From Scytonema sp. UIC 10036 (GTDB lineage: Bacteria > Cyanobacteriota > Cyanobacteriia > Cyanobacteriales > Nostocaceae): 64,000 bases of DNA. How positions within the stretch are numbered: position 1 is the first letter of the stretch; every line of letters begins with the position of its first letter. The stretch spans positions 1-64,000 of the forward strand of contig NZ_WJFC01000012.1 in the NCBI RefSeq assembly GCF_009725235.1, in the 5' to 3' direction. Shown piece by piece: positions 35,350 through 64,000 of the stretch. Position numbers and translations under genes: made by a program. The notes beneath the pieces are model-generated. The model did no database searches, had not been told where the DNA came from, and saw only the letters and a list, made by a program, of their open reading frames with translations.

Positions 35350-37443
35350 TTACTTCTCATTTTGAGATTGTTCAAATTGTTCGGGGGGAAATCCCAGTGC
35401 GATGGCTTTGTCCTTTGCTTGTTGTGCTTCTTGAATTTTTCCTAACTTCTCTAAAGCCGACCATAAATTAGCCCAAACATAAGGATTGTCTGGAGCCAAC
35501 TCTTTAGCTTTGTTAAAAGACGCTAGAGCTTCTTCATAGCGTTCTAAATCGTAAAGTACTAATCCTTTTTCTTGCCAAGTCGGATAAAAATCACTTCTTA
35601 ATTGAATGGCTTGGCCAAAGGATTTTAAAGCTTCCTCATGTTTTTGAAAGTGACGTGCTAGTAAAATTCCTCGTGCATACCAAATTTGATCGTCTTGTGG
35701 ACGGATTTGACTGGCTTGATTAAAAGCTAAAAGTGATTCTTCATACTTTCCCATTCTAAAAAGGATATTACCTTTACCAAATAAAGCCTCATAAAAATTG
35801 CGATCAATTTTAAGTGCTTTCTCATAAGAATCAAGTGCTTCTGGAAGCATATTCAATTTTTGTAAAACGTTTCCACGATCGCTTAACTCAATGAGGGCAT
35901 CAGGATGTTTTTTGATAAAATTGTTATAAAGCCATAGTGCTTCTTTAAAGTATTCTTTGGCTGTTTGTGCTCCTTGGAACGGTTCCACTGCTAAACCGAT
36001 TTCATACCAAATATTCGGTATATCTGGTCTAATTTGCCTGAGCTTCTGAAAAGCATTTGTTGCTTCTTTATACTGTCGCAAGCTCATATAGGCTATCCCT
36101 TTACCACTCCAACCTTCGGCATTATTAGGGTCAAGTTTTAATACCTTTTCATAAGTCTCTAGAGTTTCTTGATATTTCTGTAATTTATATAAAGCTCTCC
36201 CTTTACTATTTAAGGTTTTTAAATCATTAGGTTTGTAGAAGAGAGCTTTCTCATATGCTGATAATGCTCCTGGATAGCGTCCTAGGCTAAAAAGAGAATC
36301 GCCTCTCCCTTTCCATGCTTCAAAAGAGTTTGGCGCGATCGCTATAATGTTTTCAAATTCTTCACTAGCTGCTTCTGGCTGACGCAAATCCAGTAAACGA
36401 TTCCCTTGATACAAGTAATAGAACGGGCGGATAAACGGATGAATTAGAAATTCAATAAAAATGACAAAAAGACTGATTGCTAGTAGCCCAATTGCAGTGT
36501 ACCAAGGCTTGAACCATATCTGTGAAGGTAATAAAGTTCTGTCATTTTGTGTTATAGATACTGGTGTAACGTTAATTTTTGTTTCTGGTAGATTGGGAGT
36601 CCAATTTTTAACAACTCCATTTGCTTGCACTGTAATTTCACTTAAATTTTCAATGACTTCGTCTACTGTTTGGTAGCGACGCTCGGTGCTAAAATGCACC
36701 ATTTTTGTTAAAATCTTGGATAATTTATCGTCAGGCTCAACCCCTTTAGGAAATTTCACATTATCCTGTTCATCTCGTTTTAAATCTCTTGGGTGTATTC
36801 CAGTCAAAAGATGAATTGCGGTCATACCCAAGCCATAAATATCACTGTTAAAGCTTGGTCTGCCATCCATTTGTTCTGTAGGAGCATACCCAGGAGTTCC
36901 AATCATGGTATGCGTTACTAACTGCTGTCCTGATTTTAAAGATAAATCTTGTTGCTCTAGTTGTTTAACAGAACCAAAGTCAATGAGAATGAATTTTTTG
37001 TCTTCATCTCTTCTTATAACATTAGATGGTTTAATATCACGATGAATAATATTTATTTTATGAAGTGAGTTTAGAATGAATAGCATTTCTTGCAAAAAAT
37101 TAATGACTTTTTGCTTTTCCCACCGTCGTTCGAGTAATTTATCTAAAGATTGCCCTTGAATATATTCTTGAACTAAGTAGTAATTTTGTCCTTCTTCAAA
37201 ATAATTTAGAAATTTTGGTATTTGTTGATTTCTTTGCAAAAAGTTCAGAGTCTGTGCTTCTCTTTGAAATAATATCTTTGCCGTCTCAATGTCTGCATTC
37301 TGAGGGTTGAGCTTTTTGACAACGCAAGGAGAGTTGGAAGATACAATGTCTTGAGCAAGATATGTTACACCGAAGCCCCCTCGTGCTATTTCTTTGACAA
37401 GTTGATATCGTCCAACTATTAATCCTTTCGTTTCTTGTGTCAT
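35350..37443 (-). CDS. membrane Ser/Thr protein kinase with TPR repeats
   Basis: This Hanks-type kinase of about 697 residues has one transmembrane helix and a TPR-rich C-terminal half. The kinase domain occupies about 10-285: glycine loop IARGGFGVTYLA, catalytic Lys CVVKKL, HRDIKPSN, DFG in LIDFGSVKQL and APE-like GTPGYAPTEQ. The helix (AIGLLAISLFVIFIEFLI) lies near residue 325, then at least eight TPR units (for example AWKGRGDSLFSLGRYPGALSAYEKAL, over two helices). The ATG at 37443 gives MTQETKGLIVGRY; a TTG 54 bp upstream is less likely. It is divergent from the TpsB gene at 37815 and part of a duplicated locus. A role in sensing or controlling the exported system is inferred. Confidence 0.92.
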   Translation of the reverse strand: MTQETKGLIVGRYQLVKEIARGGFGVTYLAQDIVSSNSPCVVKKLNPQNADIETAKILFQREAQTLNFLQRNQQIPKFLNYFEEGQNYYLVQEYIQGQSLDKLLERRWEKQKVINFLQEMLFILNSLHKINIIHRDIKPSNVIRRDEDKKFILIDFGSVKQLEQQDLSLKSGQQLVTHTMIGTPGYAPTEQMDGRPSFNSDIYGLGMTAIHLLTGIHPRDLKRDEQDNVKFPKGVEPDDKLSKILTKMVHFSTERRYQTVDEVIENLSEITVQANGVVKNWTPNLPETKINVTPVSITQNDRTLLPSQIWFKPWYTAIGLLAISLFVIFIEFLIHPFIRPFYYLYQGNRLLDLRQPEAASEEFENIIAIAPNSFEAWKGRGDSLFSLGRYPGALSAYEKALFYKPNDLKTLNSKGRALYKLQKYQETLETYEKVLKLDPNNAEGWSGKGIAYMSLRQYKEATNAFQKLRQIRPDIPNIWYEIGLAVEPFQGAQTAKEYFKEALWLYNNFIKKHPDALIELSDRGNVLQKLNMLPEALDSYEKALKIDRNFYEALFGKGNILFRMGKYEESLLAFNQASQIRPQDDQIWYARGILLARHFQKHEEALKSFGQAIQLRSDFYPTWQEKGLVLYDLERYEEALASFNKAKELAPDNPYVWANLWSALEKLGKIQEAQQAKDKAIALGFPPEQFEQSQNEK

Positions 37444-37814
37444 TTTATATACTTGATTTAGTCTTTCAGGTTTACGTAAGCATTCGTTACCAAACAAGCA
37501 GAGAAAATTAGAATTCCGTTAACCTTATCTTTAACTTTCTAGTATTGTGTAGCTAAAATTACGATAGTTTCCATTGCCATTGATGTGAATTGTATAAATT
37601 TTATTAAGTTGACAGTATTTTGTCTACTTTATTTGTACCGACCAACTTAATTTCCCCACTATAAATCAGTTAATTTGGATTGCAATTGTAGTGACTTACA
37701 AGAACAATCTGTGGTAGATATTCCTTAAGTCAGATGTAATCCACTTTCTTAACTCAACTTAATACAGGGATTGCTTTCTACAAGAGAAACTTTTAGAGAG
37801 GAGTAAATTTTACC
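37444..37814. other. divergent intergenic region, kinase / tpsB copy 1
   Basis: No gene was seen. A TTGACA hexamer at 37609-37614 lacks a good -10. The conserved leader element at 37689-37730 and a GAGGAG ribosome-binding sequence just before the tpsB ATG are the recognisable signals. Confidence 0.5.
37689..37730 (+). promoter_or_regulatory. conserved tpsB leader element, copy 1
   Basis: TAGTGACTTACAAGAACAAT and TGGTAGATATTCCTTAAGT match TAGTGACTAACAAGGGAAAC and TGGTAATTATTCCTAAGT upstream of the second tpsB. Both lie 85-86 bp before the start codon, while the surrounding spacer has diverged. A shared promoter or regulator site is inferred. Confidence 0.5.
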
Positions 37815-39671
37815 ATGATTATGGGTAAACAGCCTGCGTGCTTAAAACTCAATCTAGCTGTTTCATTGATACTCGAAGTATCAATCGCTTCACTTTCGTG
37901 CAAAGCCTTGGCTGAAAGCTTGCCTAATGAAGATCGAAGTACGAAAAGTTTACCTCCTTCTGAATTTCAGATTCAGACTCCGAAAGATAACAACACGGTA
38001 CCACCTTTCATTTTATCTCAGGTTCAGAATCCTACCGACCTGTCTCAAACCGATCCACCAGGTACTATCCTCCCTCGTCCAATTCCTCCCCCACCACCAA
38101 AGCCAATTCCTACTCCGCAGCCTGTTCTGGAACCTCCACTGGATGTAACGCCAACACCCCAGCCATCAGAACAGCGCCCTGGAATTCCTGGAAATATCAC
38201 TGTTGAAAGATTTGAGTTTGAAGGTAACACAGCATTTAACGACCAAAAATTAAACGAGATTACAGTTAACTTTACTAATAGACCAATTACCTTTGCTCAA
38301 CTGCTGCAAGTTGAGGCCATTATTACTAAACTTTATACCGATGCTGGGTATGTCAATTCTGGTGCTGTTATCCCTGCAGGACAAGCATTGTCACCACAGG
38401 GAGCAGTCGTCAAAGTTCAGATTGTTGAAGGTTCAATTGAGGTCATTAAAGTCACAGGAACTCGTCGATTGAACTCGAATTACATACGCAGTCGAATCAA
38501 ACTTGGTACCTCTAAACCTTTAAATCGATTCCGTCTGCTAGAAGCACTGCAGCTATTGCAACTCAACCCTCTCATCGAAAATCTTTCAGCTGAATTGTCC
38601 GCAGGTTCGCGTCCAGAACAGAGTGTCTTGCAAGTTAATGTCGTAGAAGCAGACTCCTTTAGAACAGAATTTTTACTTGATAATGGTCGTGCTCCCAGTG
38701 TTGGTAGTTTCCGACGGGGTATCCGCATTAGCGAAGGCAATGTCTTTGGCTTTGGTGATGGTTTTTCTGCCACCTACACCAATACTGATGGTAGCAATAC
38801 CCTTGACCTCAGCTACTCAGCACCAGTCAATCCCCGCAATGGTTCTATCCTTGTGCAAGGTGGATTTAACGATACTTCGGTCATTGAACCACCTTTTGAC
38901 CGTATAGACATTACGGGAGATTCTTTCTACATAAATTTGGGTTTCCGTCAACCTGTCATCCAATCTCCTACTCAAGAATTAGCACTGGGTTTCACCTTTT
39001 CTCGACAGCAAAGTAGGACGCAAATTCAAGGACTGGGTTTTGGCAACCTGTCCCCAGGAGCAGATGAAAATGGAGAAACCCGCATATCAGCACTGCGCTT
39101 TTTTCAAGAATATACACAGCGTAATTCTCAACAAGTCTTTGCCTTGCGCTCTCAATTTAGTTTGGGAGTGGGGTGGTTTGATGCGACTGTCAACAACAAT
39201 GCTCCTGATAGTCGGTTTTTCTCCTGGCGGGGACAAGGGCAATATGTACGGTTGTTAGCACGAGATACGTTACTGGTTTTGCGTTCTGATGTCCAGCTAT
39301 CAACAAGCGATTTGGTACCTTTAGAACAATTTGGTGTAGGGGGTTTGCAAAGCGTTCGAGGTTACCGCCAGGATGAACTGTTGGTCGATAATGGTGTTTT
39401 TGCGTTAGCGGAGGTAAGGTTGCCTATTCTACGAGTGAGAAATATAGATGGACTTTTGCAACTCGTGCCATTTGCTGATTTTGGTGTTGGCTGGAATAGT
39501 TCTGGGAGACCTAACCGAAGCCCCAATACTTTAGTTGGTGTTGGCGTGGGCTTGCAATTTCAGATAGGTGACACTTTGAATGCTCGCTTGGACTATGGTT
39601 TTCCACTGACTGATGTTGAGTCAAGGATAGCGATAGGACTTTGCAAGAGAGAGGTTTTTATTTTCAGTTAA
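37815..39671 (+). CDS. TpsB/FhaC-type outer-membrane translocator, copy 1 (C-terminus frameshifted)
   Basis: This two-partner-secretion pore should export the TpsA proteins next to it. A signal peptide (to about residue 34, ALAES) is followed by a proline-rich linker (PRPIPPPPPKPIPTPQP), POTRA domains (about 130-290; VERFEFEGNTAF, EGSIEVIKVTGTRRL) and a 16-strand barrel with the conserved VRGYRQDEL in loop 6. Compared with the copy at 53132, two single bases are missing near the 3' end: one G after TCAAG (about 39625) and one T in the ATTTTC run (about 39662). The last strand reads ...CKREVFIFS instead of ending in FSVNFSPF (restored stop 39687). The final barrel strand and terminal Phe are lost unless these are sequencing errors. 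Confidence 0.9.
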   Translation: MIMGKQPACLKLNLAVSLILEVSIASLSCKALAESLPNEDRSTKSLPPSEFQIQTPKDNNTVPPFILSQVQNPTDLSQTDPPGTILPRPIPPPPPKPIPTPQPVLEPPLDVTPTPQPSEQRPGIPGNITVERFEFEGNTAFNDQKLNEITVNFTNRPITFAQLLQVEAIITKLYTDAGYVNSGAVIPAGQALSPQGAVVKVQIVEGSIEVIKVTGTRRLNSNYIRSRIKLGTSKPLNRFRLLEALQLLQLNPLIENLSAELSAGSRPEQSVLQVNVVEADSFRTEFLLDNGRAPSVGSFRRGIRISEGNVFGFGDGFSATYTNTDGSNTLDLSYSAPVNPRNGSILVQGGFNDTSVIEPPFDRIDITGDSFYINLGFRQPVIQSPTQELALGFTFSRQQSRTQIQGLGFGNLSPGADENGETRISALRFFQEYTQRNSQQVFALRSQFSLGVGWFDATVNNNAPDSRFFSWRGQGQYVRLLARDTLLVLRSDVQLSTSDLVPLEQFGVGGLQSVRGYRQDELLVDNGVFALAEVRLPILRVRNIDGLLQLVPFADFGVGWNSSGRPNRSPNTLVGVGVGLQFQIGDTLNARLDYGFPLTDVESRIAIGLCKREVFIFS

Positions 39672-39768: not shown

Positions 39769-42700
39769 ATGAAACAAGTTAAGCGATCGCTCTTTTTATT
39801 CACCTTACCCCCTGTCACCTTAGGGTTTCTTGCTTCTATCAGCACTGTCAGAGCGCAAATTTCTTCTGATGGCACTCTCTCGACGACTGTCAATACCACT
39901 AATGGTATAGATTTCACCATAAATAACGGCGATAGAGCAGGGGGAAACCTGTTTCACAGTTTCAGAGAATTTTCTGTGCTCACAGGTGGCTCGGCTTTCT
40001 TCAACAATGCTCCCGACGTGCAAAACATTATCAGCCGAGTCACGGGTGGTTCGATTTCGAGTATTGATGGTTTAATTCGCGCCAATGGCGGTGCTAACTT
40101 ATTTCTACTCAATCCTGCTGGTATTGTTTTTGGACAGAATGCCCAATTGAACATTGGTGGTTCATTTTTGGCAACCACAGCCAGCAGTTTCCAATTTCCT
40201 GATGGTAGAGAGTTTAGCGCTACTGACACACAAGTAGCACCACTGTTAAGCGTAAATATTCCCAATGGCTTGCGATTTCGAGAAAATCCACAACCAATTC
40301 AGGTGCAGGGTTTTGGTCAGCAGGCGGGACTTGATGGCACATCTGAAAGTTTTTCTAGCCCAACACTCGAAGTGCCAATAGGAGAGAATTTAGCCTTAGT
40401 CGGTGGTAATGTCAGTTTAGAAGGCGGGGTGTTGCAAGCCCCCGGAGGTCTAGTTAAGGTGGGAGGCTTGGCTTCCCCTGGAGTTGTAGAGATACAGAGT
40501 GATAGTGTGCGTTTTAACGATTTGCGTTTTCCTACGGGTGTGCAACGTGCTGATGTCTCTCTAACCAATCAAGCAGGTATCAACGTTATTACTGACCGAT
40601 TTGGTGGTGGAAGTACTAATATTACCGCTCGAAATATAAGTATTTCAGGAACAAGTTTGCTGACCTCTGGCTTTTTTAGTAATTTGGGAACGGTTAACTC
40701 TAGAGCTGGGGATATTACGCTTGATGCTACTGGAGAAACCAGAATAGACCAAAGCAGAATTGAGAACAATGTCAACTTTGGAACTACGGCTAATGGTAGT
40801 AATATCAATATTAGAACAGGTTCATTTGTTCTAACCAATCAGGCACAGTTGGATGCCTCAAACTTTAGCTTTGGTGGGGCTGGTAATATCTCTGTTGTTG
40901 CCGGGAGCGTGCTTATCGATCAGGCAGAATTAAGTTCCAGTATCTTTGGCTCTAGTAAAGCTGGCGACATATCTATCGAAGCTAGTGGCGCTGTGGAGTT
41001 AAAAACTGGTTTGTTTTTTAGCAATGTGGCTCCTGGAGCACAAAATGGTCAAGGGGGTAACATTACCATCAAAGCTGGCTCCCTTTCTTTACTTAGTGGT
41101 GCACAACTGCAATCCAGTGTTCTTGGTTCTACAGATAACAATTCTTCGACCACTCAAGGAAACAGTGGCAATGTGACGATTGATGTTCTGGGCAATGTGA
41201 CGATTAGTGGTTTCGACCCACAAAATGAAAACCCCAGTGCCGTTTTTACTAATGTGCAAACGGGAGCTATTGGTGATGCTGGCAATATTAATATTACAGC
41301 TAGAACATTCTCCTTAAGAGATAGCGCTGAATTGCAAACCCTTGTTTTCGGCTCTAACCCACAAAGTTCAGATGTTGTACGTGGAAATGCAGGTAGCATA
41401 TTAATAGATGCTACTGATGGGATCTCCTTTATAAATCAGTCTGCAATACGAACTTCTACTGCGCGATTGGGTAATGCTGGGAGCGTAACGCTACGAGCAG
41501 AGAATGGAGATATTTCGTTTACTGGTGTAAATGCGGTTTTCAGTACAGTAGAACGGGGAGGAATTGGTGATGCAGGTAACATCAATGTCCTTGCCAGAAA
41601 CCTTTTCTTAAGAGATGGCTCTCAACTGCAAACCAGTGTTCTTGGACAAGGAAATGCTGGCAGCATTGGCATTCAAGCTAGTGGAGAGGTCTTGTTTACT
41701 GGGTCTACAGATAGAGATGTTTTTTCAGGCAATCCAGGATTTTTCCCTAGTGGTGTCTTAAGCACGGTAGACCAGGGAGGAATCGGCAATGGTGGAAATA
41801 TTAATATTACAGCCAGAACATTCTCCTTAAGAGATGGCGCTGAATTGCGAACCCTTGTTTTCGGCTCTAACCCACAAAGTTCAGAGATTGTACGTGGAAA
41901 CGCGGGTAGCATATTAATAAATGCTACTGATGGCATCTCCTTTGTAAATCAGTCTGCAATACAAACTTTAACCCAAAGATTGGGTAATGCTGGAAGTGTG
42001 ACGCTACAAGCAGAGAATGGAGACGTCTCGCTGACTGGTGGAAGTGTGGTCTTTAGTACGGTAGAACGGGGAGGAATTGGTGATGCGGGTAATATCACTG
42101 TCCTTGCCAGAAACCTCTTCTTAAGAGATGGCTCTCAACTGCAAACCAGTGTTCTTGGACAAGGAAATGCCGGCAGCATTGGCATTCAAGCTAGTGGAGA
42201 GGTCTTGTTTACCGGGTTCACAAACAGAGATATTTCAGGCAATTCAGGACTCTTCCCCAGTGCCATCTTCAGCACAGTAGGACAGGGAGGCATCGGCAAT
42301 GGTGGCAATATCAATATTACAGCTAGAAATTTCTCCTTAAGAGATGGCGCTGAATTGCAAACCCTTGTTCTCGGCTCTAACCCACAAAGTTCAGAGGTTG
42401 TACGTGGAAATGCAGGTAGCATATTAATAGATGCTACTGATGGAATCTCTTTTATAAATCAGTCTGCAATACGAACTTCCACTGAGCGATTGGGTAATGC
42501 TGGGAGCGTAACGCTACGAGCAGAGAATGGAGATATTTCGTTTACTGGTGTAAATGCGGTTTTCAGTACAGTAGAACGGGGAGGAATTGGTGATGCGGGT
42601 AATATCACTGTCTTTGCCAGAAACCTCTTCTTAAGAGATGGCTCTCAACTGCAAACCAGTGTTCTTGGACAAGGAAATGCCGGCAGCATTGGCATTCAAG

Positions 42701-44421: not shown

Positions 44422-44439
44422 CTTCCTCGTTAGCTTTAT

Positions 44440-44783
44440 CACATCACAGCTTTTGCCGAACAAAGTTTGTCCTTAAATGGTATAGTACAAATAAATACGC
44501 CAGATGTCGATCCCAGCCAAGATTTAGTTGAATTGCCAGAGAATGTTGTAGATGCCACACAGCAGCTCGCCCAAAATCCCTGTCAACAGGATCTAGGTAG
44601 TAGGTTTTTCATTACCGGGCGTGGACAAATCAGCCCTCAATCAGTTCTACTGTTAAACAGATAGTACCAGCCCAAGGATGGGTATTCAACGATAAAGGCG
44701 AGATAGTTCTGACAGCTTACGATCCCACAAGTACTGGCACGCAACGCTCTTGGCAGACACCTGCTAGTTGTGCAGCACGCTGA
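44440..44783 (+). pseudogene. tail fragment of a TpsA gene
   Basis: The frame starts without a start codon as HITAFAEQSLSLNGIVQINTP, then DVDPSQDLVELPENV, NPCQQ and FFITGRGQ. After a frameshift near 44640 it ends as TVKQIVPAQGWVFNDKGEIV and TPASCAAR with a stop at 44781. This is the last 110 or so residues of a TpsA protein, in tandem behind the intact tpsA. The sequence after each of the two stop codons is the same (TGACTTCCTCGTT), which marks the duplication junction. Confidence 0.8.
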
Positions 44784-44787
44784 CTTC

Positions 44788-44854
44788 CTCGTTCCCTTGC
44801 TTTGCATGGGAATGTCTTTGAGAAGTGCGTTCCCAGAGTGAGTCGGGGAACGAG
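44788..44854. repeat. interspersed inverted repeat
   Basis: CTCGTTCCC and GGGAACGAG flank 49 bases containing smaller GGGAATG/CGTTCCC pairs. It resembles the element at 21675-21725. It lies between the TpsA tail and the CHAT gene. Confidence 0.65.
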
Positions 44855-47740: not shown

Positions 47741-47808
47741 GGATTGGGAGGGAACTTGATTTCTTGTTCCCTCCCCTTTACAAGGGGAGGGTTAGGGTGG
47801 GGTAAAAC
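47741..47808. repeat. dispersed palindromic repeat (CCCTCCCCTT/AAGGGGAGGG)
   Basis: This hairpin, followed by GTTAGGGTGGGGTAAAAC, is the second half of the element seen at 28818-28912. It lies between the convergent CHAT and tpsA genes. Confidence 0.8.
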
Positions 47809-47824
47809 TCCCGCCATTCTGTCC

Positions 47825-51895: not shown

Positions 51896-52330
51896 AAGTA
51901 TAGATACCTCCACAGATACTATTTGATACTTTCTCAACTTTCGCTTAAGGATAGGACTTACATCTTGACAAAAGTTTTCATATGCGCGTAACCCCTACCC
52001 TTTTTTACTAAATGGAAGTTTAGCTCAAAGAGCTTTCCTCATACATTCTTACTGGGGTAAACAAAATTAACTTTTTATGCACTTTTAATTAAGAAGATTT
52101 TCCGCCGACTCAAACACACTACTCAACGCAGTGCCACTTGTACACATATGAACCCAAATGTACTGTTATCTGGTTATGGAAAACTCTTTAGGTGAAGTTT
52201 CCTTTCAGGTTTTACCCCAACAATAACTACAACCTACTCATTGCTGATTCCGTAAATCTCATCTAACCAAACTTGGCTCTACCTGATTTACTTTAATTGT
52301 TGCATACCATATTAGGTATTTCAATATCAA

Positions 52331-52411
52331 TGTTATACCAAAGCATCCTTGTAATAATTCTTTAACAATTTTGTAGCGTCCAACTATTAAACCTTCCGTT
52401 TGTTTCGTCAT
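52331..52411 (-). pseudogene. N-terminal relic of a Ser/Thr kinase gene
   Basis: On the minus strand from the ATG at 52411 the frame reads MTKQTEGLIVGRYKIVKELL then QGCFGIT, clearly homologous to the start of the kinase at 35350-37443 (MTQETKGLIVGRYQLVKEIA, RGGFGVT). Similarity ends after the glycine-rich loop. Orientation and position relative to tpsB copy 2 match those of the intact kinase relative to tpsB copy 1. Confidence 0.8.
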
Positions 52412-52503
52412 TTTTATACACTTAATTCTTTAATTTTTCAGCAACAGTTTGTCACTCCCCAGGTCAACAAAATTTAATATATTATAGCAAATTTCAACCT
52501 AGT

Positions 52504-53046: not shown

Positions 53047-53131
53047 AGAAAAAATAACTCTAATCTTGTTTAAAATACCAGACGCGAGCGTTGCTTGCAA
53101 GAGTCAAATTTACGAAGGAGTGAATTATACC

Positions 53132-54988: not shown

Positions 54989-55027
54989 GAAATTTCTCAC
55001 AAATACTTTTGAATTGTGGATTTAATT

Positions 55028-58000
55028 ATGAAACAGATACAGCGATCGCTCTTTTTCTTCTCTTTCCCCTTGTGCTCTATTGCAAGTCTTGTCGCTGTCA
55101 CCCCTGCAAACGCACAACAAGTTATTCCCGACAACACCTTAGGTAGTGAAAGTTCTATTGTCAATACTAATGTTGATGTGAAAGGCAGTCTTGGCGATCG
55201 CATTGACGGTGGAGCGACTCGCGGGACAAGTTTGTTCCATAGCTTTGAGAAATTTAACGTCGATCCCAACGGGAGAATCTACTTTAATCCGCAAAGTGGC
55301 ATTCAAAATATTTTCAGTCGAGTGACAGGAACAAATCAATCAAATATTCAAGGAACACTGGGTGTGCTGAGTAGTAATGCTAACTTATTCTTCATCAATC
55401 CAAATGGCATTGTCTTTGGACTAAATGCGCGTCTAGATGTGGGTGGTTCATTTTTTGCCAGTACTGCTGAGAGCTTATTGTTTGATGGATTCGAGTTTAG
55501 CGCCACCAATCCTCAAGCACTACCACCAACGTTAAATATTAATATTCCTATTGGCTTGCGTTTTCGAGATAATCCCAGCTCAATTGAGGTGCGGGGTTCC
55601 GGTCAGAATTTGGGACAAAAGAATGGTGCAGAGGCAAGTTTCAAGAACACCGATCTTAACAACGTGCCGCCAGGACAGACCGATCTAGCTTTACTCCAAG
55701 TGCCAGCAGGAAAGACTTTAGCTTTTGTGGGGGGAAATGTCACTTTAGATGGTGGCGTTTTGCAAGCTCCCGGCGGTCAAGTTCAGTTGGGAGGTTTGGC
55801 AAAACAGGGAACAGTAGAGCTAAAGGACAACACTTTAATCTTTCCTGAAGGAGTGCAACGAGCTGATGTAACCTTAACGAATCAAGCAGGAATCAATGTC
55901 ATGGTTAATGACAACCGGAGTGGTGGAAGTATTACGATTAATGGACAAAACATTAGAATTTCAACTGGCAGCTTACTAACAGCTGGCATCGCCAAAGACT
56001 TGCAAACGGATAACGCTACAGCTGGAGATATTAGACTCAATGCGATTGAGTCTGTCTCGGTCACGGATAATTCAAAAATAGATAACCGTACTTATGGACA
56101 GGGGAATGCAGGCAATGTCATTATCAATGCTGGTGAGAACGTCTTATTTAATAGAAGTAGAGCCGCAAGCCCTGCAGATTCAACGGATGCCATAGGCAAT
56201 AGTGGAGACATTCGCATTACTACCAAAACGCTCACACTTACCAATAATACAAACTTTTATACTGCTAGCGTGGCACAGGGGAATGCAGGCAACATTATCC
56301 TAAATGCGAGTAACCGCATCCAGATCGATTCAGGAAGTCAAGTCAATAGCAGTGCAGCTGGCAACAGTCCGGTCAAGGGCAAGGGCGGAAATATTGAAAT
56401 TACAACAACCCCCGGTGTTTTTTCCCTTACCAATGGCAGTCAGCTTTTCGCTGATACAAATGGAAAAGGGAATGCTGGTAATGTAATTATCAATGCCAAT
56501 GAGGTCAACTTGGTCGGCCCAGATAGTTTTATTTTTAACAGGGTACTAGCAAACGCTGAGGGAAAGGGTGGTGAAATTCGTATTAATACCAACTCGTTTG
56601 TAGCAAAAAATGGCGCTACACTCTTTGCCGCTATCTTCGGAAAAGGGGATGGTGCCAATGTCATTATTGATGCGAAAGAGCGAGTGACCTTTGATGGCAG
56701 CGTAGGATTTAATGCCATTTTTAGCCCAGTGCAAGGTGGTGCTGAGGGAAATGGCGGAGCAATCCGCATTAATACCAAATTGTTGGAACTCACTAATGGG
56801 GCTACATTCAATACCAGTGTAGATCAAAATGGTCGGGGCAAGGGCGGAAATATTGAAATTACAGCCGGAGTGCTTTCTCTTATCAATAGGGGTCAGCTGT
56901 TGGCTGATACATCTGGAACAGGGAATGCTGGTGATGTCATTATCAAAGCCGAGCGGGTCGAGTTAGTTGGTGCAAATAGTGGTATTTATGATAGAGTACA
57001 AAAAGGCGCTGTGGCAAACGGTGGCGAAATCCGCATTAATACTAACTCGTTAGTAGCAAAAGATGGTGCAGCACTGTTTGCAGATATCAACGGAAAGGGG
57101 AATGGGGCTAATGTCATTATTGATGCCCAAGAACAAGTGATTTTTGATGGCAGGGTAGGAGATAATAGTAGTGGCGTTCTGAGCGTAGTGCAAGGTGGTG
57201 CCGAGGGAAATAGCGGAGCAATCAGCATTAAGACCAAATTGCTTGAACTCACCAATAGAGCTACATTAAATGCGAGTCTAGCTAAAAACGGTCAGGGCAA
57301 GGGAGGAAATATAGAAATTGAAACCGGAGTGTTTTCCCTTACCAATGGCGGTCAGCTGTTAACTGATACAGGTGGAAGAGGGAATGCTGGTGATGTAACT
57401 ATCAAAGCCGAGCAAGTAGAGTTTGTTGGTGTAAACACTGGTATTTTTAATAGGGTACAAAAAGACGCTGTAGGAAATGGTGGTAAAGTCCGCATTGATA
57501 CCAACTCTCTCGCAATGAGAAAGGGTGCTCAAGTGTTTGCAGATATAAGTGGAGAAGGGGCTGGTGCCAGTGTCTTTATTGATGCCAAAGAGCGAGCAAC
57601 CTTTGACGGTAGAGAGCCAGTGCTCGTTGATGGCAAACCAGACTTCAGTAGTAGTGGCGTTCTGAGCGTAGTCCAAGCAAGTGCTGTGGGAAATGGCGGA
57701 GAAATCCGCGTTAATACCAAATTGCTTGAACTCACTAATGGGGCTGCATTGAATACCTCTTCTAGTGGAAATGGATCTGCAGGCGACATCAATATTAATG
57801 CTAGCGATCGCATTTTTATCCAAAATACTCAAGATTTTTCTGAAAATAACACGACTGGTATTTTCAGCTTAACAGGAGGAAATAACATATCAAACAACCC
57901 ACCAGAGATTCAGATTAAAACTCGCGAGCTTTCCCTAGTTGGTAACGCTCAAATAAATGCTAGTACAACGGGGCAGAATTTAGCAGGTAATGTGATTATA

Positions 58001-58993
58001 GATACTGAATCCCTTTCTCTAAGTCGTGGAGCACAAATCCTTGCCGGAGTCAAAAAGGACGCACAAGGAACTGCTGGCAGTATTACAATTACATCCAAAA
58101 CATTAACTGTTGAGAACCAAGGTAGTAGAATAGTTGTCAGCAGTCAAGGAGCGGGAAAAGCGGGGGATATTACAATTACAACAAATAGTTTGACGCTCAG
58201 CGATAGAGCGTTCATTTCAGCAGAAACACAAAGCACAGAAGGTGGTAATATCAGACTAAATGTGCGAGATGTTTTGCGGTTGCGTCAACGTAGTGGGATT
58301 TCTACAAGCGCAGAAGGGACACAATCTGGTGGAAGTGGTGGTAACATTAATATCGACGTCCCTCTCATTGTTGCTTTTCCCGAAAATAATGACATTACTG
58401 CCAATGCTGTTAGTGGCAGAGGTGGGAATGTCAGAATTACGGTAAAAGGTTTGTTTGGAATCGCCCCCCTGAGTCGAACAGAGCTGGCGCAACGCTTGAA
58501 TAAGACAGAATCCGATATCCTCAACCCAGCTGAGCTACCAACGAGTGACATCACTGCAATTTCTCAACAACAGCCAAGGTTAGACGGTAGAGTACAACTG
58601 AACACGCCAGATATTGACCCCAATCGAGGATTAGTAGAATTGCCAGAGGACGTCACAGATCCGACACAACAAGTGGCTCAAAATCCCTGTCAACGAGGAG
58701 TCGGTAGTACTTTTGTGGTCACTGGACGCAGTGGTTTACCGCCAAGCCCAACTCAATCTCTCAGCAGTCACAATGCACGTGTTGGTTTGCTCGAACCAGT
58801 TGCTAGTACCGCAACCTCTGCAACTCCAAGTCAGTTAACTTCACCCTCTACCACTTCAATTGTTCAACAGCTAATACCAGCCCAAGGATGGGTACGAAAT
58901 GAAAAAGGTAAGGTCGTACTTACAGCTTATGACCATACTAGCACTGGTTCGCAACGTTCTTTACGAACAGCTACTAGCTGTGTTGCGCGTTGA
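55028..58993 (+). CDS. TpsA exoprotein, copy 3
   Basis: This 1321-residue filamentous-haemagglutinin-type protein lies 39 bp after tpsB copy 2. The signal peptide is MKQIQRSLFFFSFPLCSIAS up to NAQQ. The TPS domain reads DRIDGGATRGTSLFHSFEKF, QNIFSRVTG, NANLFFINPNGIVFG and LDVGGSFFAST. The beta-helix contains three repeats of about 153 residues (56390-57786). The C-terminal region has NPCQRG, FVVTGRSG, GWVRNEKGKVVLTAYD and ATSCVAR, again with the two conserved cysteines. I prefer the ATG at 55028, matching the MKQ start of the other copies. It is followed closely by CHAT copy 2. Confidence 0.93.
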   Translation: MKQIQRSLFFFSFPLCSIASLVAVTPANAQQVIPDNTLGSESSIVNTNVDVKGSLGDRIDGGATRGTSLFHSFEKFNVDPNGRIYFNPQSGIQNIFSRVTGTNQSNIQGTLGVLSSNANLFFINPNGIVFGLNARLDVGGSFFASTAESLLFDGFEFSATNPQALPPTLNINIPIGLRFRDNPSSIEVRGSGQNLGQKNGAEASFKNTDLNNVPPGQTDLALLQVPAGKTLAFVGGNVTLDGGVLQAPGGQVQLGGLAKQGTVELKDNTLIFPEGVQRADVTLTNQAGINVMVNDNRSGGSITINGQNIRISTGSLLTAGIAKDLQTDNATAGDIRLNAIESVSVTDNSKIDNRTYGQGNAGNVIINAGENVLFNRSRAASPADSTDAIGNSGDIRITTKTLTLTNNTNFYTASVAQGNAGNIILNASNRIQIDSGSQVNSSAAGNSPVKGKGGNIEITTTPGVFSLTNGSQLFADTNGKGNAGNVIINANEVNLVGPDSFIFNRVLANAEGKGGEIRINTNSFVAKNGATLFAAIFGKGDGANVIIDAKERVTFDGSVGFNAIFSPVQGGAEGNGGAIRINTKLLELTNGATFNTSVDQNGRGKGGNIEITAGVLSLINRGQLLADTSGTGNAGDVIIKAERVELVGANSGIYDRVQKGAVANGGEIRINTNSLVAKDGAALFADINGKGNGANVIIDAQEQVIFDGRVGDNSSGVLSVVQGGAEGNSGAISIKTKLLELTNRATLNASLAKNGQGKGGNIEIETGVFSLTNGGQLLTDTGGRGNAGDVTIKAEQVEFVGVNTGIFNRVQKDAVGNGGKVRIDTNSLAMRKGAQVFADISGEGAGASVFIDAKERATFDGREPVLVDGKPDFSSSGVLSVVQASAVGNGGEIRVNTKLLELTNGAALNTSSSGNGSAGDININASDRIFIQNTQDFSENNTTGIFSLTGGNNISNNPPEIQIKTRELSLVGNAQINASTTGQNLAGNVIIDTESLSLSRGAQILAGVKKDAQGTAGSITITSKTLTVENQGSRIVVSSQGAGKAGDITITTNSLTLSDRAFISAETQSTEGGNIRLNVRDVLRLRQRSGISTSAEGTQSGGSGGNINIDVPLIVAFPENNDITANAVSGRGGNVRITVKGLFGIAPLSRTELAQRLNKTESDILNPAELPTSDITAISQQQPRLDGRVQLNTPDIDPNRGLVELPEDVTDPTQQVAQNPCQRGVGSTFVVTGRSGLPPSPTQSLSSHNARVGLLEPVASTATSATPSQLTSPSTTSIVQQLIPAQGWVRNEKGKVVLTAYDHTSTGSQRSLRTATSCVAR
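56390..57786 (+). repeat. three ~459-bp intragenic repeats in tpsA copy 3
   Basis: Units start at 56390, 56849 and 57308 with NIEI...GVFSLTNGGQLL-type coils and share RINTNS, IDAKERVTFDG and NTKLLELTNGA blocks. They are more diverged than the repeats in copy 1; the third has a small insertion (VLVDGKPDFSSSG). All keep the frame. Confidence 0.85.
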
Positions 58994-59041: not shown

Positions 59042-61816
59042 ATGGTATTACGTCATTTCTTCACCAGAATATACAGAAGGCGCTCTCTTTTCCTCGCAGC
59101 CTTATTATTTACCCTCTCAACAATTTCACCTGTTATTGCCAAAGTTTCTTCACCCATCTCTATTGTCCAATCTCAGCAAGATGCCAAACAGCTTACCAAA
59201 AAAGCGAGTGAATTATACCGCCATGGCAAGTTTGAGGAATCCGCAATGATGTGGGAACAAATAGCAAATATTTTTGCGGCTCAAAAAGATAGCTTAAACC
59301 AAGCAATGGCGTTGAGTAATCTTTCTTTGATTTATCAACAATTGGGTCAATGGAGTAAAGCTGAAAAAATACTTCAAGACAGCTTAGCTATCCTAAAAAA
59401 TCAACCACAAAGCCAGGAAAAATTTAAAATTTATGCCCAAACTTTGGATATTCAAGGAAACTTACAAAGCGAAGTAGGACAATCGGCAGATGCGTTGAAA
59501 TCTTGGCAAGAAGCTACGAAAGTATACAGCACAATAGATGAGCCAGAAAAGTTAGCTCAAAGCCAAATTAATCAGGCTCAAGCAATGCAGGATATGGGGC
59601 TTTATAGCCGTTCTTGCAATACTTTACTACAAGTATTAAGTCAAGAAATTGAGATTCAAAATTGTCAAAAACTAAGAGAACTCACTCAAGTAGAATTAGC
59701 GAAAAAGCTGGAAAAAGTCAGCAATAATCAATATCCCATACACATACTAGTGGGATTGAGAAGCCTTGGTGAACTGTTGCGATTACAAGGTCAGCCAGAG
59801 TTAGCGGAAACTACTTTAATGTCAAGTATAAATTTGGCACAAAAACTGAATTCTCCTTTGGAAGAGGCTGCTGTGTATCTTAGTTTAGGCAATAGTTTAA
59901 GAGATATAGCAAAAGGCAAAACAGCTCGCGGCGAAGTACAGGATTATGAACAAAAAGCACTCTCCTACTATAATAAGGTAGTCGCTTTATCTCCACCGCT
60001 TATCACACGACAGCAAGCACAACTCAATCAACTGAATTTATTGTTGAAATTTGAGGAATTTCCACAAGCAGAACAATTATGGCGATCGCTCGAGCCTCAG
60101 ATAACGAGCTTACCTCCCAGTCGTGCAGGTGTCTACCTTCAAATCAACTTTGCTCATAACTTTGTTGAGCTAGCACAAAAAGATTTCTTCACAAAAGCTA
60201 ATTTCCAACTTCCAACTTTAAACAAAGTCAATGGAGTCTTATCAAGAGCATCTGAACAAGCCAGAAGTTTGGGAGACAAAAGAGCCGAAGCTTATGCATT
60301 AGGTTATCGTGGCAATTTGTATATGGCTAACCCAATACAAAATTTGCTTCAAGCTGAAGAATTGACAAAGCAAGCTCTGCGTATTAGTTCAACTTTTGAT
60401 TCTCCAGACATATCTTACCAGTTTTTCTGGCAGTTAGGACAGATACGCAGACAAAAAGGAGATATTAAAGATGCGATCGCAGCTTATACTAAAGCTTATG
60501 ACGCTCTGCAATCATTACGTAACGATCTGGTTGCACTCAATCCAGAAGTCCAATTTTCTTTTCAAAACACTGTAGAACCAGTCTATCGTGAGTTAGTCGA
60601 GTTAGACTTAGAATACGCAAAATCTTTAAAAGATGTGGGGAAAAATCGGGAAAGTCAAGAATTTTTAGTTCAAGCCCGTAACGTCATAGAATCATTACAA
60701 CTGGCTGAACTCAACAACTTTTTTAGAGAAGCTTGTGTAGAGGAAAAGCCCAAACAAATTGATAGCATAGATCGGACAGCAGCAGTTGTTTATACAATTG
60801 TGTTAAAAAACAGATTAGAGGTTATTCTTAGCTTACCCAATCGAGAACAATCAACTCTCAGCTTTCATACACAGCAGTTTAAGCCGGGTGAATTTGAGGA
60901 CACTGTAGACAAGGTACAACGTTCTCTCACAGATCCCAATAGTATCGAATCAGATTGGCGAATATACTACAAAAAGTTGTATGACTGGCTGATTCAACCT
61001 ATAGAGACGGAATTGAAAAACTCTAAAGTCACAACTTTAGCTTTTGTATTGGATGCAGAGTTGCGAAACCTCCCGATGAGTATCCTTTATGATGGCGAGC
61101 AGTATCTGGTACAAAAGTATGCGATCGCCCTAACGCCCGGTTTACAACTCGTCGATCCAAAACCAATTACAAAAGTTAATTTAAAAGTCTTCACCGCCGG
61201 ACTCAGCAAAATCCGAGAGGACTTCGAGCCACATAGAGACTTTAAGCCATTAAACTATGTGGAACGCGAACTAGAACAAATCAAGAAAATTGGCCTCTCA
61301 GACCGATTGATTCTCAACGAGAAATTCACTAGCACACAAATCAAAAAAGAAATTTTTGCTTCTCGTGTTCCTCCCCTAGTTCATTTAGCCACTCATGGTG
61401 AGTTTAGCTCTAAAGCGAGCGAGACATTTATTCTTGCTTGGGATGAACGTATCAGTGTTAAACGCTTAGGTGACTTATTGCGAGACGATCGGTTATATCA
61501 GAGTAAACCTATCGAGTTATTAGTTCTTAGTGCTTGTGCAACAGCAAGTGGAGACAAACGGGCTGCTTTAGGACTAGCAGGAGTCGCAGTACGCTCTGGC
61601 GCTCGCAGTACCATAGCAACATTGTGGCCTGTTGTAGATGAAACCACAACACAGATTATGGGTGAATTTTACAGCCAGTTAGAACAAGCTAAGAAGATAA
61701 ATTTCAGTAAAGCTCAAGCCCTGAGAAAAGCACAATTAGCTTTTATTGAGAAATACGAAAAGTACAGGCATCCTCACTTTTGGGCACCTTTTGTTCTAGT
61801 TGGAAACTGGCAATGA
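59042..61816 (+). CDS. exported TPR-CHAT protein, copy 2
   Basis: This 924-residue paralogue of the protein at 44883 has a signal sequence (RIYRRRSLFLAALLFTLSTISPVIA, to about 34), then TPR repeats, then a CHAT domain with His785 in VHLATHGEFSS and Cys832 in LLVLSACATASGD; it ends HPHFWAPFVLVGNWQ. The start codon is preceded directly by CCAAAATCTAAAATCTAAAA-type heptamer repeats, so there is no normal ribosome-binding site. It is only 48 bp from tpsA copy 3 and likely co-transcribed. The signal peptide and both catalytic residues are kept in both copies, which argues for selected, active, exported proteins. Confidence 0.93.
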   Translation: MVLRHFFTRIYRRRSLFLAALLFTLSTISPVIAKVSSPISIVQSQQDAKQLTKKASELYRHGKFEESAMMWEQIANIFAAQKDSLNQAMALSNLSLIYQQLGQWSKAEKILQDSLAILKNQPQSQEKFKIYAQTLDIQGNLQSEVGQSADALKSWQEATKVYSTIDEPEKLAQSQINQAQAMQDMGLYSRSCNTLLQVLSQEIEIQNCQKLRELTQVELAKKLEKVSNNQYPIHILVGLRSLGELLRLQGQPELAETTLMSSINLAQKLNSPLEEAAVYLSLGNSLRDIAKGKTARGEVQDYEQKALSYYNKVVALSPPLITRQQAQLNQLNLLLKFEEFPQAEQLWRSLEPQITSLPPSRAGVYLQINFAHNFVELAQKDFFTKANFQLPTLNKVNGVLSRASEQARSLGDKRAEAYALGYRGNLYMANPIQNLLQAEELTKQALRISSTFDSPDISYQFFWQLGQIRRQKGDIKDAIAAYTKAYDALQSLRNDLVALNPEVQFSFQNTVEPVYRELVELDLEYAKSLKDVGKNRESQEFLVQARNVIESLQLAELNNFFREACVEEKPKQIDSIDRTAAVVYTIVLKNRLEVILSLPNREQSTLSFHTQQFKPGEFEDTVDKVQRSLTDPNSIESDWRIYYKKLYDWLIQPIETELKNSKVTTLAFVLDAELRNLPMSILYDGEQYLVQKYAIALTPGLQLVDPKPITKVNLKVFTAGLSKIREDFEPHRDFKPLNYVERELEQIKKIGLSDRLILNEKFTSTQIKKEIFASRVPPLVHLATHGEFSSKASETFILAWDERISVKRLGDLLRDDRLYQSKPIELLVLSACATASGDKRAALGLAGVAVRSGARSTIATLWPVVDETTTQIMGEFYSQLEQAKKINFSKAQALRKAQLAFIEKYEKYRHPHFWAPFVLVGNWQ

Positions 61817-61983: not shown

Positions 61984-62571
61984 TTAAAATCCAGGTGGAA
62001 GAAGCACTCGATCGATTTCAACAATGACACCATTCTGTGCTTCGAGCGACGGTGGTTTACCAGTAGCATTATTTAGCTTGATCGTACCGTTTGCCTCATC
62101 GACAGTTACTTTGACCTTGTGACCTTCTAACAAAGTTTGTATTTCCTTACCATGTAAGTTTTCATCAGAGATTACCCCTGAAACTAAATGATATTTCAGC
62201 ACTTTCAGTCGATTTTCTGGCTTGTTGTACCGCTGATACACATCTCTAGGTAGAGCCTTAAAAGCTTCATTGGTTGGAGCTAGAACTGTGAAACGACCAT
62301 TCTTAAGGGTTTTAAGAAGTTGAGCTTTGTTCAATTCATAGACAAGATCGGTAAATTTCCCTTCTTGACTCAGGGTATCAGCAATGTTTTTTTGAGAGTT
62401 ACGGTAGGGATAGTTACGATAAGCAGAAGGTTGGAAAAGAGCCGATGGAGGATAAAATTTAGCCAAGACAGGAACACAGATGGTGGTACTGATACCAGCA
62501 ATTGCGATCGCGAAGGTAAACTTCTTCAACCAATTTTTAGGAATTGGGGTCTTTGAATTTTGAGGAAGCAT
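61984..62571 (-). CDS. exported fasciclin (FAS1) domain protein, copy 2
   Basis: This protein of about 195 residues has a signal peptide (FAIAIAGISTTICVPVLA) and one FAS1 domain: NIADTLSQEGKFTDLVYEL, FTVLAPTNEAFKALP, VLKYHLVSGVI, IKLNNATGKP and the end VIVEIDRVLLPPGF. It is a close paralogue of the gene at 51311-51895 and holds the same position, convergent with the end of a CHAT gene. The start at 62571 matches the paralogue. It is a possible adhesion partner of the TpsA proteins, inferred from co-location in both copies of the locus. Confidence 0.9.
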   Translation of the reverse strand: MLPQNSKTPIPKNWLKKFTFAIAIAGISTTICVPVLAKFYPPSALFQPSAYRNYPYRNSQKNIADTLSQEGKFTDLVYELNKAQLLKTLKNGRFTVLAPTNEAFKALPRDVYQRYNKPENRLKVLKYHLVSGVISDENLHGKEIQTLLEGHKVKVTVDEANGTIKLNNATGKPPSLEAQNGVIVEIDRVLLPPGF

Positions 62572-62885
62572 AAAGCGAGCACCTTTGATGTAAACGAATA
62601 AATACTTTTTCAACTTATAGTTAAGATGAAAACTTTTGCCTTTACAAAATTTTGATTCTGTGCATTATAATCCCCTTTATTGACGGGGAGTTGTTCCCAC
62701 TATATATATATCAATTAAAAACTCATGAATTACGCATCTTTAAAAAACTTTTGAAAGCTATAGCAGTCCTCGGTGAGTTCGACGAAGCACTCATCAGACT
62801 TCACCCCGAACCCCACGTTGTCTCGGTTAAAAGTATCAGTACGCCTGTTCCCTGTTAAGCGTTCCTCGTTCTCTTTTTTTAAGAA
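62572..62885. other. intergenic, no gene seen
   Basis: A/T-rich with an ATATATATAT run near 62703. A 68-codon plus-strand frame here (62652-62858) has no protein-like features and is disregarded. Confidence 0.5.
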
Positions 62886-64000
62886 TTATTTCAACTTCTG
62901 TAATTGTTCGCGGGGAAAACCTAATTCAACTGCTTTGTCATAAGACTCGCGAGCTTCTTGAGTTCTCATTAAAATCTCTAAGACATAACCTCGATTAGCC
63001 CAAATATACGGGTTCTTTGGTTCTAGCTCTTTGGCTCTGTTAAAAGCATCTAGCGCATCACTGTATCGTTGTAGCTCTAGTAGTGCTAGTCCTTTGCTTT
63101 GCCAAGCAGGGGAAAAATCATTTCTCAAGTCAATGACTCTGTTAAAAGAGTCTAATGCTCCTTGATGATCTTTAAAGGATTGCGCCAGTACAATTCCTCG
63201 ATTATACCAAACTTGATAATCTTGCGGACGGAGCTTGCTGGCTCGTTCGAAAGCAGAAAGGGCTTCTTCACGTTTTTCTGCACCCATAGAAAAAAGTACG
63301 TTGCCCATACCAAGTAAAGCTTCATAAAAATTTGGATCGATTTCCAGTGCTTTTTGATAAGAAGCCAATGCATCTTTAGGGCGATTTAACTTTAGTAAAA
63401 CAGTCCCTTGGTCAGTCCAAGCAATTAAATTTTGTGGTTTTCTTTTAAGCAAAAGGTTGTAAGATGCTAACGCTTCTATATAATGTTCTCTGGCAACTTG
63501 TGGTCCCTGTACCTGTTCTGTAGCCAAACCTACTTCGTACCAAATTTTCGGATCGTCAGGTCTAATTTGCCTGAGTTGATTGAAGGAATCCGATGCTTCC
63601 TTATACTTTTGCATCCCCATATAAGCTAAGCCTTTACCACTCCAAGATTCAGCATCTTTAGAGTCAATTTCCAGGGCTTTTTCGTGCATATCTAAGGCTT
63701 CTTTATACCTACGTAATTTGTAGAGAACCTTACCTTTATTATTTAGGACTTTTACATTCTTGGGTTGTAAAGACAGGGCTTTATCATACGATCCCAAGGC
63801 TCCTGAATCACGTCCTAAGCTTAAAAGAACATCACCTCGACCTTTCCAACCTTCAACAGAATCAGGTTTCATTGCGATAAGGTTTTCAAAGTGTTCTAGA
63901 GCAGCTTCTGGTTGACGCATATCCAGTAACTGATTACCTCGATACGCGTAATAAAAGGGTCGGATAAACGGATTAATTAATTCTAAAGTGACTGCAATAA
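62886..64000 (-). CDS. Ser/Thr kinase-TPR protein, C-terminal part (runs off the window)
   Basis: The frame is open through the right edge of the window. Just before the TPRs it reads LINPFIRPFYYAYRGNQLLD, matching the post-membrane segment of the kinase at 35350-37443 (LIHPFIRPFYYLYQGNRLLD), so the missing N-terminal part very likely contains a kinase domain and membrane helix. About 360 residues are visible, with at least nine TPR units (for example GWKGRGDVLLSLGRDSGALGSY). It ends FPREQLQKLK, similar to the other kinase. A methionine at 63920 is only an internal residue. It sits beyond fasciclin copy 2 and may belong to a third copy of the locus. Confidence 0.88.
   Translation of the reverse strand, partial: IAVTLELINPFIRPFYYAYRGNQLLDMRQPEAALEHFENLIAMKPDSVEGWKGRGDVLLSLGRDSGALGSYDKALSLQPKNVKVLNNKGKVLYKLRRYKEALDMHEKALEIDSKDAESWSGKGLAYMGMQKYKEASDSFNQLRQIRPDDPKIWYEVGLATEQVQGPQVAREHYIEALASYNLLLKRKPQNLIAWTDQGTVLLKLNRPKDALASYQKALEIDPNFYEALLGMGNVLFSMGAEKREEALSAFERASKLRPQDYQVWYNRGIVLAQSFKDHQGALDSFNRVIDLRNDFSPAWQSKGLALLELQRYSDALDAFNRAKELEPKNPYIWANRGYVLEILMRTQEARESYDKAVELGFPREQLQKLK

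What the first reader, a model, noticed from the sequence alone, without database searches (positions are those of the whole stretch)
35350..64000. Duplicated kinase-TPR / TpsB-TpsA-CHAT / fasciclin locus as a candidate exoprotein system
The same plan occurs twice: kinase-TPR gene on the minus strand, then tpsB-tpsA-CHAT on the plus strand, then a fasciclin gene on the minus strand. Copy 2 keeps only a kinase relic but is followed by another kinase-TPR gene. The conserved linkage of a secretion pore, a giant adhesin, an exported caspase-like CHAT-TPR protein and a FAS1 adhesion protein suggests one functional system, perhaps regulated surface display with proteolytic maturation. The linkage is seen; the joint function is inferred.
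Basis: partly seen in the sequence, partly recalled or inferred. Interest (0 to 1): 0.75.

Follow-up and report, generated by a model that had tools for sequence, protein, structure and literature searches.

The report
Adhesin secretion locus with built-in caspase
A cyanobacterial DNA stretch carries two old copies of a gene set that pairs a large surface protein and its outer-membrane exporter with a caspase-like protease, and the same pairing, often as one fused protein, recurs in many cyanobacteria, which suggests a protease dedicated to controlling how the surface protein is displayed or released.

Summary
The gene order is real and present twice, with corrections: a third tpsA (47825-50992, minus) sits between CHAT1 and FAS1a, and the copies are old paralogues (CHAT 64%, TpsB 67% identical). 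The linkage is not accidental. In 388 genomes of one order, 316 of 318 with this CHAT type also have a TPS protein, against 31 of 70 without it. From 29 of those 31 genomes I sampled 40 TpsAs; of 34 with a complete 3' end, 24 carry CHAT fused in the same protein. Where CHAT stands alone, TpsAs mostly end in a two-cysteine tail instead (27 of 35). The window's FAS1 subfamily and kinase-TPR gene form a variant: all five genes recur in five other genomes. CHAT looks exported, keeps the caspase His-Cys pair, and its model matches the TPR-CHAT protease Csx29. Best reading: type Vb secretion with a dedicated caspase-like protease on the periplasmic side, likely acting on the TpsA C-terminus to control retention or release, like LapG-CdrA but with unrelated parts. 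Association is shown; cleavage, site, and the FAS1 and kinase roles are inferred.

The parts
35350..37497 (-). Ser/Thr kinase, one hydrophobic segment (about residues 329-347), then TPR repeats; likely start ATG near 37443
   Evidence: Pfam Pkinase 115.6 bits and TPR_1; hydrophobic segment; TPR in the periplasm is inferred
37815..39671 (+). tpsB1: POTRA and ShlB/Omp85 barrel exporter
   Evidence: Pfam ShlB 94.3 bits, POTRA_2 47.7 bits; profile matches CdiB and FhaC chains
39769..44421 (+). tpsA1: TPS domain, repeats, C-terminal two-cysteine tail (C1451, C1547, its only cysteines)
   Evidence: Pfam TPS 202.7 bits; cysteines
44470..44793 (+). degenerate second copy of the TpsA1 C-terminus
   Evidence: blastn 81-86% to pieces of 44016-44431, 85% protein identity over 53 residues; broken frames
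44883..47711 (+). CHAT1: signal-peptide-like N-terminus, TPR, C-terminal CHAT domain with H797 and C844
   Evidence: Pfam CHAT 200.7 bits; invariant H797 and C844; hydrophobic N-terminus; model like Csx29
47825..50992 (-). tpsA3: further TpsA with the same two-cysteine tail (C956, C1052)
   Evidence: Pfam TPS 203 bits; cysteines
51311..51937 (-). FAS1a: small fasciclin-domain protein with a hydrophobic N-terminus; likely start ATG near 51895
   Evidence: Pfam Fasciclin 97.8 bits; subfamily alignment A2
52310..52427 (-). relic of the kinase N-terminus
   Evidence: tblastn 51% over 35 residues, E 3e-7; blastn 52330-52427 to 37362-37458, 79%
53066..54988 (+). tpsB2; likely start ATG at 53132
   Evidence: Pfam ShlB 98.0 bits; 67% identical to TpsB1
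55016..58993 (+). tpsA2, 27 bp after tpsB2; two-cysteine tail (C1225, C1322)
   Evidence: Pfam TPS 183.9 bits; spacing; cysteines
59042..61816 (+). CHAT2, 48 bp after tpsA2; CHAT-TPR with signal-peptide-like N-terminus and His-Cys pair
   Evidence: Pfam CHAT 191.3 bits; 64% identical to CHAT1
61984..62613 (-). FAS1b
   Evidence: Pfam Fasciclin 94.2 bits; 58% identical to FAS1a
62886..64000 (-). TPR part of a probable second kinase-TPR gene, cut by the window edge
   Evidence: 58% identical to the TPR part of 35350-37497; no kinase domain inside the window

Best explanation
A two-partner (type Vb) secretion system with its own caspase-like protease. TpsB exports TpsA, a long surface protein that ends in a conserved tail whose two cysteines could close a disulfide loop and hold the C-terminus on the periplasmic side of TpsB, as proposed for HMW1 and HxuA. 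The TPR-CHAT protein, encoded next to tpsA and with an export-type N-terminus, works on that side: TPR binds, CHAT cleaves, and the most likely target is the TpsA C-terminal region, so CHAT sets whether TpsA stays anchored or is released. In another branch of TpsAs the CHAT domain stands where the tail would be, in the same protein. In the window's variant a transmembrane kinase with a TPR part and a small FAS1 protein are the likely control parts. Shown: gene set, conserved linkage, CHAT in cis or in trans, conserved catalytic pair, export-type N-termini, the cysteine tail. Inferred: periplasmic site, cleavage, the target, disulfide anchoring, and the control roles.
Against: No cleavage, localisation or disulfide was measured. 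The tail also occurs in TpsAs mostly away from CHAT genes (18 of 20 closed ones in G001), so it may be a plain anchor unrelated to CHAT. Fusion-type and tail-type TpsAs differ in their TPS domain (about 150-192 against mostly 230-355 bits with the profile) and the four fusions in the tree lie together on long branches, so the swap of tail for CHAT may be one or few old events. 8 of 34 and 3 of 35 closed TpsAs have neither tail nor CHAT (a few end in masked stretches). Two CHAT-plus genomes lack TPS. One frame (L248) holds tail and TPR-CHAT together. Ten of 47 well-flanked CHAT loci have no TPS or TpsB. Export-type N-termini are not special to linked CHATs: 11 of 11 that I labelled linked, but also 6 of 12 others in G001, pass the same hydrophobicity mark of 1.8. 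In the fusions CHAT could equally well be carried outside.
Confidence: 0.5

Rival explanations
1. CHAT is a surface effector: TpsA is a stalk that carries a caspase-like protease outside the cell to act on neighbours or foreign proteins, in the manner of CDI stalks.
For: In 98 of 120 listed relatives of one fusion both domains are in one protein, and in the 24 fusions CHAT forms the C-terminal end, the place where CDI-type TpsAs carry effectors.
Against: Standalone CHAT has no TPS domain, so by the known rule TpsB should not export it (established knowledge). The C-terminal domain is CHAT again and again, not a set of varied toxins, though the first list was found with a CHAT-bearing query. 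No immunity family was seen among the 17 window proteins scanned; they were not sought elsewhere.
Confidence: 0.2
2. CHAT is a quality-control protease and chaperone that clears TpsA stalled in the periplasm, like DegP for FhaB and HMW1.
For: TPR plus protease; 316 of 347 genomes with TPS have this CHAT type.
Against: A CHAT in cis at the TpsA C-terminus suits a timed, single-substrate event better than general clearance; a clade-specific kinase and FAS1 partner suggests regulation.
Confidence: 0.15
3. An envelope alarm: TpsA or the TPR senses attack or stress and CHAT acts as a death or defence caspase, with the kinase as relay.
For: CHAT domains are named among effectors of bacterial conflict systems (PMC10907252, passages). 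The kinase domain matches PADLOC models of the anti-phage kinase PD-T4-6 at up to 304.7 bits. Plasmid copies exist.
Against: The PADLOC kinase matches cover the kinase domain only, many such models match, and CHAT1 matches only a TPR model; the other five of seven proteins given match nothing. Presence in 316 of 347 genomes with TPS does not look like a patchy defence system.
Confidence: 0.1
4. Accidental neighbours.
For: None beyond the repeat-rich region.
Against: Linkage, fusion and co-occurrence results.
Confidence: 0.02

Closest known systems
LapG-CdrA (Pseudomonas aeruginosa) regulated adhesin release
   Same: A TpsA adhesin with a C-terminal tail on the periplasmic side and a periplasmic protease that cuts it (review PMC5422565, passages).
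   Different: LapG is of another protease family (recalled); here the protease is TPR-CHAT, is encoded beside or fused to TpsA, and the tail cysteines are about 96 residues apart.
HMW1 and HxuA C-terminal disulfide anchor
   Same: C-terminal region with a disulfide expected to lock TpsA in TpsB (PMC5422565, passages); the Hmw1B group of TpsBs holds many cyanobacterial sequences (PMC4104836, passages), not tested for these TpsBs.
   Different: No neighbouring protease is reported for them in the passages read.
SphB1-FhaB maturation (Bordetella)
   Same: A protease releases a TpsA.
   Different: SphB1 is a subtilisin autotransporter whose gene is outside the TPS locus; the same review says maturation protease genes appear not to be part of TPS operons (passages). 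Here a putative protease gene is.
Csx29 TPR-CHAT protease of Craspase
   Different: Csx29 is cytoplasmic and RNA-guided (recalled); this one looks exported and is linked to secretion; the sequence match to the Csx29 family model is only 18.6 bits against a cut-off of 300.
CDI stalks (CdiA-CdiB)
   Same: TPS export with a C-terminal enzymatic domain in the fusions; the TpsB profile matches a CdiB chain best.
   Different: No varied toxin module seen; CHAT also occurs as a separate protein; immunity genes not systematically sought.

Membership tests
Two-partner secretion (type Vb) | TpsA with N-terminal TPS domain | tested here: met
   Pfam PF05860 202.7, 203 and 183.9 bits
Two-partner secretion (type Vb) | TpsB with POTRA and ShlB/Omp85 barrel, adjacent | tested here: met
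   PF03865, PF08479; 97 and 27 bp upstream of tpsA
Two-partner secretion (type Vb) | TpsB-dependent export of TpsA | not testable with these tools
   needs an experiment
CHAT / caspase-like (clan CD) protease | His-Cys catalytic pair | tested here: met
   H797 and C844 invariant in 22 rows; 87 of 87 and 99 of 99 domain matches
CHAT / caspase-like (clan CD) protease | caspase-like fold | tested here: met
   Model pLDDT 79.9; Csx29 and separase among matches
CHAT / caspase-like (clan CD) protease | proteolytic activity | not testable with these tools
   needs an assay
LapG-type adhesin-release system | LapG-family (transglutaminase-like) protease | tested here: not met
   CHAT1 matches CHAT and TPR models but no other peptidase family in the Pfam list. 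The works-like claim is kept, membership is not claimed
LapG-type adhesin-release system | TpsA held by a C-terminal periplasmic tail | tested here: inconclusive
   Two-cysteine tail in 75 of 76; anchoring not measured
CDI (CdiA) | exchangeable C-terminal toxins with immunity genes | tested here: inconclusive
   CHAT at the C-terminus in the 24 fusions; immunity genes were not systematically sought
Fasciclin (FAS1) domain | PF02469 match | tested here: met
   97.8 and 94.2 bits

The most novel reading that the evidence does not exclude
Cyanobacteria run a widespread form of type Vb secretion in which most TpsAs are paired with a caspase-like protease, either as a separate partner that acts on a two-cysteine anchor tail or as a domain that stands in the place of that tail, giving a regulated switch between anchored and released surface fibres; kinase-TPR plus FAS1, or CHAT-CHASE2 plus DUF1822 plus DUF928, are interchangeable control modules.
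Probability: 0.45. Interest if true: 0.85.

Novelty: new variant of a known kind. Interest (0 to 1): 0.7.

Why it matters
[quoted passage not shown] Here is a large group in which a putative protease is in the operon or in the protein itself. It gives a likely job and place (the cell envelope) to part of the very large CHAT complement of filamentous cyanobacteria (67 CHAT matches in one genome), and a clear test: is the TpsA C-terminus the substrate? If so, surface adhesion in cyanobacteria would have a caspase-type release switch.

Tried and rejected
Accidental linkage: rejected by conserved sets, fusions and co-occurrence. FAS1 in general as a part: rejected; in six genomes with complete CHAT lists, 3 of 36 FAS1 places lie within 2 kb of a CHAT (compared by eye) and these are the three that score under 105 bits; p 1.4e-4. 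Defence island: the kinase matched PD-T4-6 and other kinase models, CHAT1 a TPR model, five further proteins nothing. Recent duplication: rejected by identities and tree (quick method, 98 rows). The top Foldseek rows, DdvA, have query TM-scores of 0.23 and 0.38 and are not among the 50 rows of the second look, so they are not used. DUF928 model: weak matches only (best MtxA, TM 0.32). Promoter-like patterns: 128 in the window against 99 expected, no use made. Kinase topology: of six other kinase frames looked at, five show a hydrophobic segment and L131 shows none at the mark used. Literature, held library only (open licences, no subscription journals): no paper has both 'CHAT domain' and 'hemagglutinin', or all of CHAT domain, two-partner secretion and cyanobacteria. 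A search for at least 2 of CHAT domain, CHASE2, DUF1822, TpsA, filamentous hemagglutinin found 59 papers, 20 listed, none of those with CHAT domain. DUF928 occurs in one paper. In the listings I saw no paper joining TPS and CHAT; only the listed rows were seen. Passages read: PMC3482391, PMC10907252, PMC4104836, PMC7517822, PMC3501461, PMC4374960, PMC5422565; no paper was read whole.
Full report
WHAT IS IN THE WINDOW. Pfam confirms the listed genes and BLAST shows them to be paralogous pairs. The kinase relic upstream of tpsB2 is real (about 52310-52414). In copy 2, tpsB-tpsA-CHAT have gaps of 27 and 48 bp; in copy 1 the gaps are 97 and 461 bp, the latter largely filled by the broken TpsA piece. 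No whole genome is held for the window.

LINKAGE ACROSS CYANOBACTERIA. With profiles built here, 47 of the 80 have at least 9 kb on both sides: 37 have TPS or TpsB, 36 have DUF928, CHASE2 or DUF1822, 29 have both kinds, 44 have any of these or FAS1; three have none. TPS lies directly upstream on the same strand in 41 of 70 loci with at least 3 kb of left flank, TpsB in 6. Four plasmid stretches of Nostoc (two), Anabaena cylindrica and Planktothrix carry TpsB, TpsA and CHAT with DUF928 and CHASE2 genes. In the near-complete genome G001 (Scytonema sp. NIES-4073, L016), one search gave 8 ShlB matches, two of them pieces of one gene; of these 7 places 6 lie about 3 kb from a canonical CHAT (150 bits or more) and the seventh is a 26-bit match. 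From the CHAT side, 6 of 23 canonical CHATs lie within 8 kb of ShlB (rotations: mean 0.28, 24 of 20000 as high), 7 of 23 within 8 kb of TPS (mean 1.01, 17 of 20000), none near FAS1. Of the 23, the 12 that score over 300 bits with the profile are the secretion-linked type: 10 of 12 lie within 11 kb of TPS or 3.7 kb of ShlB, against 1 of the other 11 (p 6e-4; the distances were chosen after seeing the data).

CO-OCCURRENCE. In 388 genomes of the order of Fischerella muscicola (drawn from a larger group), a match to the CHAT alignment at E 1e-120 or better occurs in 318 (two candidates scored per genome) and a TPS domain in 347. Comparing the handles by eye: both 316, CHAT only 2 (G142, G347), TPS only 31, neither 39; Fisher p 8e-32. 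Genome size and kinship confound this, since small genomes lack both more often.

CHAT IN CIS OR IN TRANS. A single open frame with TPS at the start and CHAT at the end was seen in Microcoleus sp. EPA2 (L041) and in G015. Of the 120 listed relatives of the first (the query included; 1830 passed the E-value), 98 carry both domains by profiles built here. I then sampled TpsAs from genomes that have TPS but no CHAT match of this type: 40 TpsAs, picked by me from the upper part of the list for length and room on the contig, from 29 of the 31 genomes (G273 and G397 left out as short pieces). Six run off the stretch; of the 34 closed ones 24 are TPS-CHAT fusions, 2 have the tail described below and 8 have neither; 20 of the 29 genomes have at least one fusion. 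As control, 30 mostly small genomes that have standalone CHAT gave 67 TPS matches; I took the first 40 by score with an open frame of at least 700 residues, which favours the tail type: of 35 closed, 27 have the tail, 5 are fusions, 3 neither. Tail 27 of 35 against 2 of 34, p 7e-10. One of the 27 (L248) has tail, then TPR-CHAT, in one frame. In G001, 18 of 20 closed TpsAs fetched mainly from places away from CHAT genes have the tail and none is a fusion. Fusion-type TpsAs have a different, lower-scoring TPS domain and the four fusions in the CHAT tree lie together on long branches, so the two forms may be old lineages that parted once or a few times rather than a change repeated often.

THE TAIL. 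76 of 87 TPS frames of the 85 records share a C-terminal signature with the window TpsAs; none of the 120 fusion-list proteins has it. 75 of the 76 have two cysteines in the last 170 residues; in 66 these are the only cysteines of the mature part, with median spacing 96; in the window C1451/C1547, C1225/C1322, C956/C1052. By analogy with HMW1 and HxuA (PMC5422565, passages) this suggests a disulfide anchor held at TpsB. The tail is not limited to TpsAs next to CHAT genes, so it may be a general anchor.

FAS1 AND KINASE. The window FAS1s belong to a divergent subfamily. Searching the 388 genomes with its alignment and reading the 30 best loci with 1.5 kb flanks, CHAT lies next to FAS1 in 11 of 30 and a kinase in 6 of 30; two more lie beside TPS frames that prove to be TPS-CHAT fusions. 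With about 10 kb flanks for 20 places, some have the kinase but no CHAT (L129, L130, L135, L140, L141) and L123 and L126 have neither. The complete set of five occurs in F. muscicola, F. thermalis, T. campylonemoides (L088), G061 (L125) and G013 (L131, Oscillatoria princeps genome, kinase beside FAS1). In a 98-row CHAT tree (quick method) the 16 rows I labelled FAS1-linked (one of them, L008, with FAS1 about 6.6 kb away) need 5 label changes against 15.1 for shuffled labels, 0 of 500 as low; three unlabelled rows sit in the main FAS1 clade, one of them (L009) at a contig end. CHAT2 joins T. campylonemoides before CHAT1 (supports 99 and 98), so the duplication predates that split.

HOW IT MIGHT WORK. 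A putative protease that comes either beside TpsA or as its C-terminal domain, with conserved catalytic residues and an export-type N-terminus, most simply acts on TpsA at the envelope. Because standalone CHAT has no TPS domain it should stay in the periplasm (established rule for TpsB export), and because CHAT stands where the tail would be in the fusions, the TpsA C-terminus is the best guess for where it acts. The window kinase has one hydrophobic segment after the kinase domain, so its TPR part is probably periplasmic (inferred; the kinase of L131 shows no such segment). This would work like LapG-CdrA but with unrelated parts. None of the biochemical steps is shown.

Noticed in passing
   Followed up: yes
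28816-28910, 34661-34751, 35223-35314, 47746-47811: A dispersed repeat of about 65-90 bp (84-98% identical, both orientations); one copy fills most of the gap between CHAT1 and tpsA3, so it may mark a rearrangement there.
   Followed up: no
L001:20028-27148, L002:15896-23284, L003:11932-17815, L004:2822-14478: A sister cassette on plasmids: TpsB, TpsA, CHAT with DUF928 and CHASE2 genes (DUF1822 too in three of four). In L002 the CHASE2 protein also has a weak CHAT match (44.8 bits), so the cassette may hold a second caspase-like protein.
   Followed up: partly
L085:2560-11568: A 3002-residue TPS-CHAT fusion with a TpsB gene 55 bp downstream on the other strand.
   Followed up: yes
L248 frame 473-5365: TpsA with two-cysteine tail signature followed by TPR-CHAT in one frame, a possible link between the two forms.
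   Followed up: partly
41276-42815 and 56370-57606: Long internal repeats in tpsA1 (about 0.5 kb period, 90-93% identical) and tpsA2 (459 bp unit, 2.7 copies).
   Followed up: no
7269-19735, for example 10435-10501: Several runs of 7-base tandem repeats.
   Followed up: no
L132:6779-13147, and L133, L134: FAS1 sits between two different CHAT genes, one scoring 128-130 and the other 427-428 bits with the profile.
   Followed up: no
34840-35202: A XisI-family gene (157.9 bits) just upstream of the locus.
   Followed up: no
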